Of a stretch of DNA of 64,000 nucleotides, positions 25,901 through 49,619 are shown one piece after another. This DNA comes from Semisulcospira habei (taxonomy: Eukaryota; Mollusca; Gastropoda; Semisulcospiridae), in contig BTPG01000003.1 in NCBI GenBank assembly GCA_036245525.1, forward strand, positions 205,479,535-205,543,534, written 5' to 3'. Positions within the stretch are counted from its first letter, which is position 1, and each line of letters begins with the position of its first letter. The notes under the pieces are model-generated. The model was not told the DNA's origin. It made no database searches and was given only the letters and a program-made list of their open reading frames with translations. Position numbers and translations under genes: made by a program.

Positions 25901-26230
25901 GAGAGATAGAAGAATGTACTTTACTCAACCACCAGATCCTCAGGAGCCAAACAGATGCCCTAAAACTATTAAATTTTAATCTCAAACACACACAATTCTC
26001 TAAATGCTAACATAATTTCCACCTCACTGGCACCAAAACCGTATTTTGAAACAAACACTGGCTCATGAAAATCATCATCTGTATTGCCGAGTAAAATACT
26101 GACCCAATGACCATTGTCTTAATTAACCCCAATAATTAACTAATTAAGGACGTTAACATCCACAATACCGTTTCTCTCAAATCAAGCCAAATTCTCAGTG
26201 CACTTTGTGGAAATAGACTAATGTCATTTT
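25901..26230 (+). repeat. Left terminal inverted repeat of the large element
   Basis: Starts GAGAGATAGAAGAATGTACT. It aligns to the reverse complement of 49,291-49,619 with about six mismatches in the outer 260 bp, then more divergence near 26,166-26,215. It includes the blocks aaaaccgtattttgaaacaa and aattaaccccaataattaac. Confidence 0.95.
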
Positions 26231-26589
26231 ACACACACTCATAGTCAGTGCTGGTAACCATGGGTGAATACACAAACAACAGACTGCAAGTAAAATACAT
26301 TTAAGTCAGCCAGTCAGTCTCCTCTTTTAAATCTGTGGCGCACACTATTTTATAAGCCACCTGTTTACTCACCTGTGTAGCCTAATCGTTTTACATTTGA
26401 TTGCTGTTTGTGGCACGTCGCTATTCAATTTAAGTTATGCGAGAGGGGACATTTCCTTTTAATGAAGACATGCTTTTATCAATAAGCGACCACGTCACTG
26501 AAGGCTTTTGAAAGGCTGTTACTGAGAGGTGTAAATATAGTATTCACATTTTTATAAACACACGCACAAACAAACACAGACAAACAAAC

Positions 26590-26732
26590 AGACACACACA
26601 CACACACACACACACACAAGAATACACACACACACACACAAACACACACACACACACATATAAACACACATACATACGCACGCACACACACACACACACA
26701 CACACACACACACACACACACACACACACACA
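26590..26732. repeat. (CA)n microsatellite
   Basis: Interrupted then pure CA; its last part (26,683-26,732) borders the first copy of a 2.5-kb duplication. Confidence 0.95.
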
Positions 26733-27602
26733 GGGAGACAAAACCATCAGAGTGGGTTACCTACCATTTTATGTGAAAATGGGTTCCCATATATTTCTAT
26801 TTATTCTAGGGCTCTGGAGTTGATGCGAATGTTTAGAACTCACCTTGTAACTAAGCTCTACAACTTAAAAAAAGACATTTTCTAGAAACAGAGCCACTGG
26901 ATGGAGAAAAAGTGGGTTTCTACCAATAATGTGGGGGCCTCTCACACTAAAACTGGCATTACAGTAGAAATGGGAGTCCTTGTCAAATCACTCATTTTAG
27001 CATGGACATCTCAAGAAAATTAGGTGTCTGTAATAAGGTAAAGTTCACGGAATATTTGATGCTTCTTTTCCACATTTATTTGATTGTTGTCATTCTTTTT
27101 TCAGCTTAATGTATATTCCTTCTTTTTCCTGCAAATTCAAAATGTAAAGCACAATGACACAACAACACAATGAACAAATACCTCACTAAAAATACCTCTG
27201 GTTGATTTTCTAATGATTGTTTGGGTAGGGTTGGGGGGGGGGGTGGGGGGCGGGAGGGGAGGGGGTGAAGGTGAGGAGGGGGGGGAAGGGGGGTCATCAC
27301 TTTGGGTTTTATAGAGGCGCGCAACGAGTTGCACATGAAACCACCCACAAATACACATTTGGAGTGCACCAGATGGATCCAGTTGGTCAAGTCCCACATT
27401 CCACACTATAGGACAGCTAAGACTGAGAAGCAGTCGCAACGTTTATGGCGTGGTGCAAGGTTTAAAACTAAGAAACTGTTGTTTTTAGAAGCGTGTCGGG
27501 CAACAGTTTTGATTAAAACTGTTTTAAAACCTCTCCTTATACTCAACTTTTGTTAATGTTAAAAGTGTTTTCATTTACAGGCGTGTCATAACTGTTATGC
27601 AT

Positions 27603-28008
27603 CTATTCCAACGTCCCCCACCCGGGTCTGCCCTGGGGGACTTGGGTGGGGTAACTACTTTTTAGTTCCCAGGGTCACCCTGATCAGCCCCACAGGGTGG
27701 GTTTTCTTCTGTATTCTGGGGCATGTGTTTCTGTCTACCCTTGGTCCATTCATCTGTATTTTCCTTTTTTAAACTCTCCCTACTGTCTGCGCTGCCTGTA
27801 ACTCTTGATATTGGATGTGTGTTGCTAAATGGTCTTAGCTTTATTTAGGCCACATGTCGTAGGTTTATTTAACGTATTGGACCGGCTGGCGACATACATT
27901 CAATATTCTGTTTTTTTTTTGTTTTTTTTTTCACAAGCAGTGCAGACACGTCCTGAAAAAGCCATGTTGCTGTCGGGACGTTAAGCAATGTACAATCAAT
28001 CAATCAAT
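27603..28008 (+). mobile_element. CAAT-tailed short interspersed repeat, copy 1
   Basis: About 400 bp from cccccacccgggtctgccct to gggacgttaagcaatgtaca followed by (ATCA)n. Other copies: 30,349-30,764 (reversed), 32,442-32,788 and 32,787-33,167. Defined 3' end plus a short tetranucleotide tail is typical of a SINE or truncated LINE. I see no clear pol III boxes. Confidence 0.65.
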
Positions 28009-29106
28009 CTATTCCAACGTAATAGTGCTGGATATCATAGTTTTCCCCATTGTCGCCTTCTCTCTTTACTCAGCACTCGACTCTCCAGTCCTTCCCTCAG
28101 CATTCACACAAACAATACTTTACTATTACACCCTTTGGCAACATTAGGTGGTTGTTGTTTTTTTCTCTGACCTAACATTAGTTGTTTTTTTCTCTGACTG
28201 CAGCAGACGACACACCTAACGACTCTAACTGTGTGACGTCATTGTATTCAATCAACTTGTGCATACAATCTGACAGAAGTTGCAGTCAAAACAAAAGCAT
28301 AGCACCAACAAACCCACTTAAACAAAGCAACAGGTTGAACCAAAAGACACAAGACAACAGCAGCCTCACCCAAAGTCTATACGTCCTCTCTCTCACTGCG
28401 CACTCATACAATCACTTTACTTCTTAGCAACTGGTGCACGAATATAATTATAGGCTAAGTCAAACTAAAACAGAAGATAGTGGCGGAAAACCCTTTAAAA
28501 TAGAAACAAAGAACGATGTTTCAGATCAAATATTCTTCATCTGACATGGAAACAAATGTAGAAAACGTTTAGGCTAAGTCCCTGGTGAACGTATACATGA
28601 ATCTCAAATTTGTCACTAGACATGACCTTTCTGCACATCACCCCAGAAGTACATCACAACTCAACACTTTTTTTTAACAAAACCCTCAAATAACAACCTA
28701 ATTTTGTAGGAACATAAACAATTTACTCCCTCAAACAACAAAATATCTCCCCCCCCCCCCCACCTGACCCATATCAGCTATGAAGTTATTTATAGCTGAG
28801 AAGGGTGATGTAATACATACACGCTCATTTTCAGGGTTCTGTGCGCACAACACACACACACATTGCTGGGAGGGACAAGTTTTCAAACACACTACAGGCG
28901 TGTCTGTTAAAAACAAAAGTGCATGTTTTAACGCCAAAACGAGAAAAACTGATCTTTTTATTTTTTATGAATCTTTACCCCAAGACAATGCAGAAACAAC
29001 CCTCAGAAAAAATGGGTGTCTGACTTGGTCACCCAGATTTTTACACACACCCATTTTCCATAAGGATGGTAAAGACAGTCACCCATATGAGCTCTTCCGT
29101 GTACAC

Positions 29107-29178
29107 ACACACAGACACACACACACACACACACACACACACACACACACACACACACACACACACACACACACACAG
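29107..29178. repeat. (CA)n microsatellite
   Basis: Right border of duplicated block copy 1. Confidence 0.95.
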
Positions 29179-47911: not shown

Positions 47912-48620
47912 ATGAGTGCTGGTCCAAAGCCAAGAATTATTCCAGTTGCGTGTCCTGTAAAAGAGTTGAAAGATTTGGCTGACGTACAGGATTTTGAGAA
48001 GGAGGGGGAGGTGGGCGAGGTGGATGGATTTGAACTTAATTCTTTCAATATGTACAAGAGAAAAGTAATAGATGACATGAAGGATGGCACTGATAGACCA
48101 ATTCCTAAACTTGGACAGCTGCGTGATGTCACTGTTCCTACTCCACCTGTAAATAATGCACCCTACAACTTAATACATGTGGGTAATAAATGGGTAATTT
48201 CGCCTGTGCCTGCACTGCTACCCACAATTGACTGGGACATAAAGTTGGAATTTATTAGTCCTTATGTATATACTGATGATGAAGGTGCCTTAGTGTTTAG
48301 AAAAGTTGTTAACTCTGGGCCGCTTATTGTAAGCCTTGTTCCAAGTTTTGTCTTCAGACAACAATATCAGAGATAAACTGAAAGTACAAGAGTATGAGAG
48401 ATATCTTCTTATGCATAGGAAAAATAGATCAGATGCAAAGGTCGTGTTTGCACCAGCAAACTTTCCCATCGCAATAGAAGAGACAATAGTATTTGAAATT
48501 ATCATGAGATCTGTAACTTCTGTGAAAGAGGCAGATATAGCACAGAGAATAAAACTTACATGGGATGAAACATTGACAGAGTCAACACAAGTTTTTATTG
48601 CTATTAGAAAAAAAAATTAG
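47912..48620 (+). pseudogene. Element protein of unknown function, single frameshift
   Basis: ATG 47,912 (MSAGPKPRIIPVACP), an acidic stretch (DFEKEGEVGEVDGFEL), then LGQLRDVTVPTPPVN, VGNKWVISPVP and IDWDIKLEFISPYVYTDDEG. The frame breaks at about 48,340. The following frame (LQEYERYLLM-like region from about 48,385) runs to the stop at 48,620, ending FIAIRKKN. Original length near 235 residues. No domain recognised; beta-rich, possibly a virion protein. Confidence 0.5.
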
Positions 48621-48813
48621 ATGTTTTTGAGGTTTTGAGCAGTGTTCTAGCCGTCAAGATATTGGTCGACAAAACATTTTTTGTTTTTCTAAATTTTATA
48701 AAGCTAGAACACATTGATCTTGTTTTGTTTTATTACGCCAGCAAATTGTATACTTTTGACGAGTTGCAAAATGTAATTGCTGATTAAATAAAAAATATTT
48801 GTGAATAAAAAAA

Positions 48814-49113
48814 ATGACAAAATTCTATCCACAACTACCGATGCTTGAGTCTGTGTCGACGCTTGCACCTGATCCGTATGTGCCAATTGCATCAAATAAA
48901 ACATTACAGGCAGACGCATTCCGATTAATAAATATTACAGAAGCAATTAAATATTTGGGAAGTGAAGAGGCGAGGTCCTCCAGATGTAAAAGGTCAGTAT
49001 TTAATTCTGTACAAAACACATCTATGGCTGTTGGTACAGTTTCAGCTGGTTGTTCTGTAGGGGGTATTGTTCTGTTTGCCACAGGAATTGGAAGTTTAAT
49101 TAAGAACTTGTAA
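48814..49113 (+). CDS. Element last gene: small membrane protein
   Basis: 99 codons from an ATG preceded by gaataaaaaaaATG. Polar N-terminus (MTKFYPQLPMLESVSTL), a helical middle (DAFRLINITEAIKYLG), a basic stretch (SSRCKRS) and a C-terminal hydrophobic segment (GGIVLFATGIGSLI). No lesions seen. It lies about 180 bp inside the right terminal repeat. Function unknown. Confidence 0.5.
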   Translation: MTKFYPQLPMLESVSTLAPDPYVPIASNKTLQADAFRLINITEAIKYLGSEEARSSRCKRSVFNSVQNTSMAVGTVSAGCSVGGIVLFATGIGSLIKNL

Positions 49114-49122
49114 GAACTTACA

Positions 49123-49180
49123 GTAAGTAATTAATAAGTTCTTATGGTAAGTAATTAATAAGTTCTTATGGTAAGTAACT
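49123..49180. repeat. 24-bp direct repeats next to the right terminus
   Basis: The unit gtaagtaattaataagttcttatg occurs at 49,123-49,146 and 49,147-49,170, with a partial third copy (gtaagtaact) to 49,180. It is AT-rich and located between the last gene and the terminal repeat. Confidence 0.85.
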
Positions 49181-49290
49181 TAAAGGTTACCTCTGCAGGT
49201 TACTAAAAGTTAGTTGTAACTTGTTAGTAAGTATAAAGTTCTACTTGAGAAAAAAATGTTCCTCAGAAATCGACTCTGACAGGTGGGTTG

Positions 49291-49619
49291 AAATGTCATT
49301 AGTTTATTTACAGAGTGCACTATCACTTTTTGGTTTGATTTGAGAGAAACGACCGTGTGGATGTTAACGTCCTTAATTAGTTAATTATTGGGGTTAATTA
49401 AGGCAATGGTCATTGGGTCAGTATTGTACTCGGCAATACAGATGATGATTTTCATGAGCCAGTGTTTGTTTCAAAATACGGTTTTGGTGCCAGTGAGGTG
49501 GAAATTATGTTAGCATTTAGAGAGTTGTGAGTGTTTGAGATTAAAATTGAATAGTTTTAGGGCATCTGTTTGGCTCCTGAGGATCCGGTGGTTGAGTAAA
49601 GTACATTCTTCTATCTCTC
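49291..49619 (-). repeat. Right terminal inverted repeat of the large element
   Basis: Reverse complement of 25,901-26,230; ends ...agtacattcttctatctctc. The outer 260 bp match with about six differences. Confidence 0.95.

What the first reader, a model, noticed from the sequence alone, without database searches (positions are those of the whole stretch)
25901..49619. A 23.7-kb virus-like element defined by 330-bp inverted ends
The two terminal repeats are 23 kb apart and near-identical over their outer 260 bp. They enclose a cassette with integrase, family B polymerase, capsid-like and membrane proteins. This identifies the whole interval as one integrated element of the self-synthesising/virus-derived type, larger than usual because of nested repeats.
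Basis: partly seen in the sequence, partly recalled or inferred. Interest (0 to 1): 0.92.

Follow-up and report, generated by a model that had tools for sequence, protein, structure and literature searches.

The report
Decayed Polinton transposon with nested repeats
This is a dead copy of a known kind of virus-like DNA transposon (a Polinton, or Maverick) in an animal genome, swollen by other repeats that landed in it, with its insertion point shown by an undisturbed duplicate of the same site nearby.

Summary
The inverted ends exist (309/331 columns; 6 mismatches in the outer 260 bp) and bound one insertion: CTCTGAG flanks both ends, and a paralogue of the site 37 kb away holds the flanks joined, with CTCTGAG once (2032/2286 columns). 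The element is a Polinton/Maverick with integrase, broken family B polymerase, a probable capsid-gene start and further ORFs. It is dead: two LINE fragments (one inside the polymerase gene), two copies of a 2.5-kb dispersed repeat, frameshifts, and a 2.5-kb deletion where a 16.2-kb sister keeps a packaging ATPase. Nested repeats do explain most of its size. The genome holds nine facing pairs of these ends (this one included) among 40 scored hits, 12.7-27.9 kb apart; 6 of 9 have exact 5-bp and 1 of 9 exact 6-bp target duplications. So it is a new member of a known kind. The unexpected lead lies outside the window: ten near-identical copies of the integrase/polymerase block are bounded, where readable, by different ends with exact 9-bp target duplications (6 of 6 readable), as if carried by another transposon.

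The parts
25897..25903 (.). left copy of the flanking direct repeat CTCTGAG (target site duplication, 5-7 bp; register ambiguous)
   Evidence: single copy at the empty site
25901..26229 (+). left terminal inverted repeat, begins AGAGATAG at 25902
   Evidence: 40 of 40 scored genomic hits (925 candidates) at 89-100%
26600..29177 (.). nested dispersed 2.5-kb repeat, copy 1, with (AC)n at both ends here
   Evidence: 40 of 40 scored of 2,076 candidates at 93-100%; extent from L032 and L033
31460..34430 (.). nested dispersed 2.5-kb repeat, copy 2, same orientation, with an extra SINE-like segment
35884..36505 (+). Polinton-derived sequence with ORF 36123-36458, shared with three of three sister left arms
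   Evidence: 83-91% identity
36505..37757 (-). nested LINE fragment (RVT_1), absent from three of three sister arms
37775..38134 (+). Polinton ORF of unknown function
38095..38520 (.). 425 bp present here and absent from three of three sister arms
38751..39297 (+). two ORF pieces, hydrophobic and then coiled, shared with sisters
   Evidence: no Pfam match
39349..40188 (+). DDE integrase (rve), 279-aa frame; what looks like the end of the gene lies in another frame at 40143-40352
40311..44172 (-). family B DNA polymerase gene in at least six pieces; 5' part deleted
41095..42189 (+). nested LINE fragment inside the polymerase gene
   Evidence: absent in a relative
44281..44290 (.). junction of a 2.5-kb deletion relative to a sister copy
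44176..44693 (-). probable start of the major capsid protein gene, two frames
   Evidence: PF16903 E 0.025; sister piece 0.031; both below cut-off
44698..45843 (+). open 381-aa ORF: large uncharacterised family, coiled-coil hairpin and hydrophobic C-terminal helices
45984..47191 (-). broken gene in at least four pieces, possible second virion protein (recalled likeness)
   Evidence: no convincing family match (best DDE_Tnp_1_assoc E 0.024; Spike_JR2 E 0.16; NCBIfam none for one piece)
47180..48620 (+). ORF pieces of one or two further genes, possibly minor capsid (inference)
   Evidence: no convincing family match (best E 0.064); no homologue for 47894-48373
48805..49113 (+). 102-aa ORF with hydrophobic C-terminus
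49291..49619 (-). right terminal inverted repeat
49619..49625 (.). right copy of the flanking direct repeat CTCTGAG

Best explanation
A Polinton/Maverick integrated once here, into one copy of a duplicated host segment, and then decayed. Inferred life cycle, as for the family: the polymerase copies a linear form by protein priming from the inverted ends, and the integrase joins that form to chromosomal DNA by staggered cuts that leave a 5-6 bp duplication. Shown here: the single insertion event, the target duplication and most of the gene set. After insertion the copy took in two LINE fragments, two copies of a 2.5-kb dispersed repeat and SINE-like segments, gained frameshifts and stops, and lost 2.5 kb including the packaging ATPase that a sister copy keeps.
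For: Inverted ends. Empty site with one CTCTGAG in paralogue L010, 2032/2286 columns (89%), and an unbroken second paralogue L011, 1011/1287 (79%), whose site itself has diverged. Integrase and polymerase families. 2,305 integrase homologues among 2,784 candidates. Nine facing end pairs in the genome, 6 with exact 5-bp and 1 with exact 6-bp duplication. A sister copy carries a Pox_A32 packaging ATPase, E 7.7e-13, in the stretch missing here. The LINE and repeat insertions are absent from sisters at the matching points. End motif, end length and size fit published vertebrate Mavericks.
Against: Capsid assignment is weak (E 0.025, below cut-off), and the polymerase Pfam match is below cut-off too. 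No protease was found, and the genome search for it did not complete. 2 of 9 end pairs show no exact target duplication. 22 of 40 scored ends have no partner among the 40. Of 8 sister pairs only 2 hold an integrase among the 139 scored of 12,458 candidates. Replication and movement are not observed.
Confidence: 0.95

Rival explanations
1. The inverted ends are a short independent repeat family and the cassette between them is coincidence.
For: Of 40 scored genomic hits to the ends, 22 have no partner among the 40.
Against: Nine facing pairs 12.7-27.9 kb apart, exact target duplications in 7 of 9, an integrase 3.9-5.5 kb inside the end at four sister places, and the empty site. Partners of the 22 may lie among the 885 unscored candidates.
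Confidence: 0.02
2. The interval is two abutting or recombined Polintons, the left 10 kb coming from another one.
For: The left 10 kb has no Pfam match in the ORFs scanned and contains repeated blocks.
Against: The blocks belong to a dispersed repeat whose other 38 scored copies are not beside a listed Polinton end. Sister left arms align collinearly once they are set aside. One target duplication brackets the whole.
Confidence: 0.02
3. It is a still functional virus-like element.
For: The 381-aa ORF and most of the integrase are open.
Against: LINE inside the polymerase gene, loss of the ATPase, frames broken in the polymerase, capsid, integrase and other genes.
Confidence: 0.01

Closest known systems
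Polinton/Maverick elements of animals (Kapitonov and Jurka 2006, recalled; PMC8097293, passages and section 7 read; PMC4028283, abstract and first of four parts of the text read)
   Same: Inverted ends of 330 bp (published 46-1,447), AG-repeat termini, 23.7 kb (published 12.7-24.6), rve integrase, family B polymerase, probable capsid start, A32-type ATPase in a sister copy
   Different: This copy is broken and enlarged by nested repeats; most duplications here read as 5 bp rather than 6
Adintoviruses (PMC11071296, passages read)
   Same: Integrase, family B polymerase and virion-type genes in one animal element
   Different: The defining N-terminal OTU domain of the polymerase would lie in the missing part; hexon match not tested
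Mavirus and virophage-like integrations (PMC8547959, passages read)
   Same: Target duplications of 5-6 bp for mavirus and Maverick-type elements, inverted ends
   Different: Protist hosts and a different gene set (recalled)
Teratorn (PMC5601938, PMC10175614: search listing and start of abstracts only), relevant to the side finding alone
   Same: Viral genes carried by the ends of another transposon
   Different: Teratorn is piggyBac plus herpesvirus; here Polinton genes lie within ends that make 9-bp duplications

Membership tests
Polinton/Maverick | long terminal inverted repeats with AG-rich termini | tested here: met
   motif
Polinton/Maverick | 5-6 bp target site duplication | tested here: met
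   CTCTG(AG), with empty site; 7 of 9 pairs exact, 2 of 9 not
Polinton/Maverick | rve integrase | tested here: met
   PF00665 E 7e-12; aspartate and glutamate columns kept in an alignment with 11 homologues
Polinton/Maverick | protein-primed family B polymerase | tested here: met
   PF03175 E 5e-4, below cut-off; PHROG DNA polymerase 5e-5; gene broken; that it is protein-primed is inferred
Polinton/Maverick | A32/FtsK-type packaging ATPase | tested here: not met
   absent from this copy, missing by deletion; present in sister L040, E 7.7e-13. Not defining for a single copy: PMC4028283 finds it in 83% of Polintons
Polinton/Maverick | double jelly-roll major capsid protein | tested here: inconclusive
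   PF16903 E 0.025 and 0.031 in sister, both below cut-off; N-terminal part only
Polinton/Maverick | adenovirus-like cysteine protease | tested here: inconclusive
   no match among the window ORFs scanned; genome search not answered
Polinton/Maverick | minor (penton) capsid protein | tested here: inconclusive
   candidate pieces 45984-48620 give no convincing match
Adintovirus | OTU-like N-terminal domain of polymerase | not tested
   that part of the gene is missing here
Mutator-like (side finding, young copies) | 9-bp target duplication and long inverted ends (recalled as typical) | tested here: met
   6 of 6 readable of 10 copies; ends alike over 557 bp, 95%, in one copy
Mutator-like (side finding, young copies) | MULE transposase | tested here: inconclusive
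   not among 7 ORFs scanned from fetched pieces; no copy was read whole

The most novel reading that the evidence does not exclude
In this genome a Polinton integrase-polymerase block has been captured between the ends of a different DNA transposon (GGGTCCTACTAAAACCCGG..., about 557-bp inverted ends, 9-bp duplications) and amplified recently into many near-identical copies of about 19 kb. That would be a Polinton counterpart of Teratorn, with parts of two mobility systems in one element. The window copy is an older, ordinary relative of the cargo.
Probability: 0.55. Interest if true: 0.68.

Novelty: new member of a known kind. Interest (0 to 1): 0.4.

Why it matters
The window copy is a clean case: ends, target duplication and empty site are all visible, and most of the extra length can be assigned to nested insertions. 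Its value lies in the family it opens. One genome holds at least 139 scored relatives of the integrase, so target-duplication length, age and gene loss could be measured directly. A young group bounded by foreign ends suggests that virus-like genes can be spread by an unrelated transposon, which bears on how such elements pass between virus and transposon life styles.

Tried and rejected
Rejected: an independent short repeat (pairs, integrase inside, empty site); two fused Polintons (sister arms collinear); a working element (broken genes). A 6-bp duplication for this copy (CTCTGA) cannot be excluded, because the A is shared with the element end; the 5-bp reading fits 6 of 9 pairs. The open 381-aa ORF was not taken as a sign of function: by a rough estimate of mine (no call), at about 3% divergence of the ends an ORF of that size can stay open by chance.

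Led nowhere: six scans of viral contigs and one of genome contigs gave no confirmed relative; the homologue search with 47894-48373 gave none at E <= 0.001 among 28 candidates; PDB sequence searches with a polymerase piece, two capsid pieces and the sister's ATPase ORF gave no meaningful match; the fold search of the 381-aa model against viral structures gave none at E <= 0.001. The PDB fold search was never accepted.

Labels recalled, from no call: the protein-primed life cycle, 9-bp duplications as typical of Mutator-like elements, Thiodiazotropha as a clam symbiont, and the likeness of several window ORFs to known Polinton genes (a lead, not a test).
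Full report
Where it lies. The window is G000:C3:205479535-205543534 of a 1.98-Gb genome in 507 contigs. The lengths printed for C1-C8 sum to about 1.96 Gb, so eight chromosome-scale contigs hold nearly all of it. The host is an animal, perhaps a mollusc; that is inference (among the 120 rows listed the only organism named is a bacterial bin, Candidatus Thiodiazotropha, which I recall as a clam symbiont).

The ends. The inverted pair is real: 309 of 331 columns, E 3e-141, 6 mismatches in the outer 260 bp, no third copy in the window. Both ends are flanked by CTCTGAG. A search of the genome with the right flank had 57 candidates, 40 of them scored; apart from self only two matched over most of the query. 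In a script I joined 1,500 bp of each flank and aligned this to both. L010, 37 kb downstream on the same chromosome, aligns without a break through the insertion point (2032/2286, 89%) and has CTCTGAG once. L011 on C6 aligns unbroken over 1,287 columns (1011 identical, 79%), though the seven bases themselves have changed there.

The family. With the left end as query, 40 of 40 scored hits (925 candidates) match at 89-100%; 18 of the 40 form nine facing pairs, the window's own included, 12.7 to 27.9 kb apart, and 22 have no partner among the 40. With ends read as AGAG...CTCT, six of nine pairs have an exact 5-bp duplication (own, C7:144.70, C3:113.87, C2:275.4, C8:10.2, C4:177.9), one of nine an exact 6-bp one (C1:220.55), two of nine none (C7:89.36, C1:126.7). 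PMC8547959 (passages) gives 5-6 bp for mavirus and Maverick-type elements, so this is within the known range; PMC8097293 (passages and section 7) gives 6 bp, AG-repeat ends, inverted ends of 46-1,447 bp and sizes of 12.7-24.6 kb for intact vertebrate Mavericks.

The genes. Integrase: PF00665 E 7e-12; 2,305 homologues among 2,784 candidates; in an alignment with 11 of them the catalytic aspartate and glutamate columns are kept, and what looks like the end of the gene is out of frame. Polymerase: at least six pieces on the minus strand, PF03175 E 5e-4 and an endonuclease-VII-like match PF02945 E 0.0017, both below cut-off, PHROG DNA polymerase 5e-5. Capsid: two pieces, PF16903 E 0.025 for one, below cut-off. 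The open 381-aa ORF belongs to a family with 542 hits among 8,000 scored candidates; none of the 120 listed carries a Pfam domain, and its own matches in Pfam, PHROGs and NCBIfam are weak (best E 0.0013, unknown function). Two contig lengths, 9,977 and 11,425, recur in the listings, which hints that it travels with the integrase. An AlphaFold model from 51 sequences (mean pLDDT 74.9, pTM 0.50) shows a small alpha/beta domain, a long helical hairpin (185-297) and further helices; no viral fold matched at E <= 0.001.

Why it is so long, and dead. Left arms of three sister copies (L037-L039) were aligned to the window. In L039 the end is followed after 0.7 kb by sequence matching 34,806 onward; here that distance is 8.6 kb. 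The two blocks 26.6-29.2 and 31.5-34.4 kb are copies of one dispersed repeat: 40 of 40 scored hits of 2,076 candidates at 93-100%, the window's own two included; none of the other 38 lies beside a Polinton end listed. Of three further copies fetched, two match the whole block, about 2.5 kb; the third (L031) is interrupted and stops at 28,694. In the window (AC)n lies at both ends of the block. The 2.3 kb between the blocks is only partly assigned; a piece of it resembles the host flank of L038. The LINE at 36.5-37.8 and the 425 bp at 38.1-38.5 are missing in three of three sisters; the LINE at 41.1-42.2, inside the polymerase gene, is missing in a relative. In sister C1:220.55 a stretch of 2,534 bp sits where the window has 10 bp at 44.28 kb. 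It holds an ORF with Pox_A32 E 7.7e-13; that it also holds the end of the capsid gene and the start of the polymerase gene is inferred from position and strand, since those ORFs gave no telling Pfam match. The sister's 16.2 kb plus these differences gives about 24.3 kb, near the observed 23.7.

Against this reading. No protease was found and its genome search did not complete. Of eight sister pairs, two (C1:220.55 and C2:275.4) hold an integrase from the list, which scored 139 of 12,458 candidates; two more listed integrases lie about 4 kb inside unpaired ends (C8:110.5, C6:35.16). The other six pairs were not shown to hold genes.

Side finding. The ten best integrase copies other than the window's (91% identity, same bit score) are not bounded by these ends. 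Their left arms are 99.4-99.7% identical to that of the first of them. Where both ends could be read (6 of 10), they begin GGGTCCTACTAAAACCCGG and carry exact 9-bp duplications in 6 of 6; in 3 of these 6 the two ends differ in the number of a short internal repeat, so that only 42-47 of the first 60 bases line up without gaps. One more shows 8 bp with a variant right end; three were not readable. One copy measures 19.0 kb with ends alike over about 557 bp at 95%. Inside, about 1 kb from the outer end, some 100 bp of the inner Polinton end survives; then come Polinton sequence from window position 35.4 kb equivalent to the integrase, the polymerase gene and part of the ATPase stretch, interrupted by other repeats, and finally sequence without Polinton match (pieces from different copies). 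No MULE transposase was found in 7 scanned ORFs. A search with the outer 979 bp scored 40 of 5,050 candidates; comparing its listing with that by eye, 16 of the 27 longest matches have a listed integrase 4.0-6.1 kb away and 11 do not, and 0 of the 13 shorter ones do. One literature search (Maverick, Mutator-like, composite transposon, Polinton; at least 3 of 4) found 11 papers and listed 8; from titles and abstract starts none of the 8 describes such a carrier. This does not show that none is in print.

Verdict. The finding is correct and, for the window, ordinary in kind: a degenerate Polinton with nested repeats and a paralogous empty site. The 9-bp-bounded group is the part worth following.

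Noticed in passing
G000: C4:4.64, C5:168.0, C6:9.32, C7:159.9, C8:162.0, C10:0.24 Mb (among L043-L058): Near-identical copies of the Polinton integrase/polymerase block bounded by other inverted ends (GGGTCCTACTAAAACCCGG) with exact 9-bp target duplications in 6 of 6 readable of 10 copies
   Followed up: partly
window 26600-29177 and 31460-34430; L031-L033: Abundant 2.5-kb dispersed repeat with (AC)n at both ends in the window, inserted twice in the same orientation
   Followed up: partly
window 27616-28012, 30350-30762, 32443-32787, 32788-33168: SINE-like 390-bp repeat with an ATCAATCAATC tail in three of the four copies; also in sister arms L037, L038 and in L062
   Followed up: partly
window 49663-49833, L010, L011: Possible exon just right of the insertion: frame open, gaps against the two paralogues mostly multiples of three; Pfam finds nothing and PDB sequence matches to Ig domains are weak (best E 0.037)
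   Followed up: partly
window 44698-45843: Open 381-aa ORF of a large family with no Pfam domain in the 120 listed members; helical hairpin and hydrophobic tail
   Followed up: partly
window 18798-20064, 36505-37757, 41095-42189: Three copies of one LINE, 96-98% alike, two of them short fragments inserted in the element
   Followed up: yes
window 1932-2019, 3125-3212, 6148-6235, 25733-25820, 49973-50060, 52519-52606 and others: Short dispersed repeats in the flanks that look self-complementary by eye (families D11 and D12); not measured
   Followed up: no
window 53465-53712: Tandem array of a 61-bp unit, 4.1 copies, 94% matches
   Followed up: no
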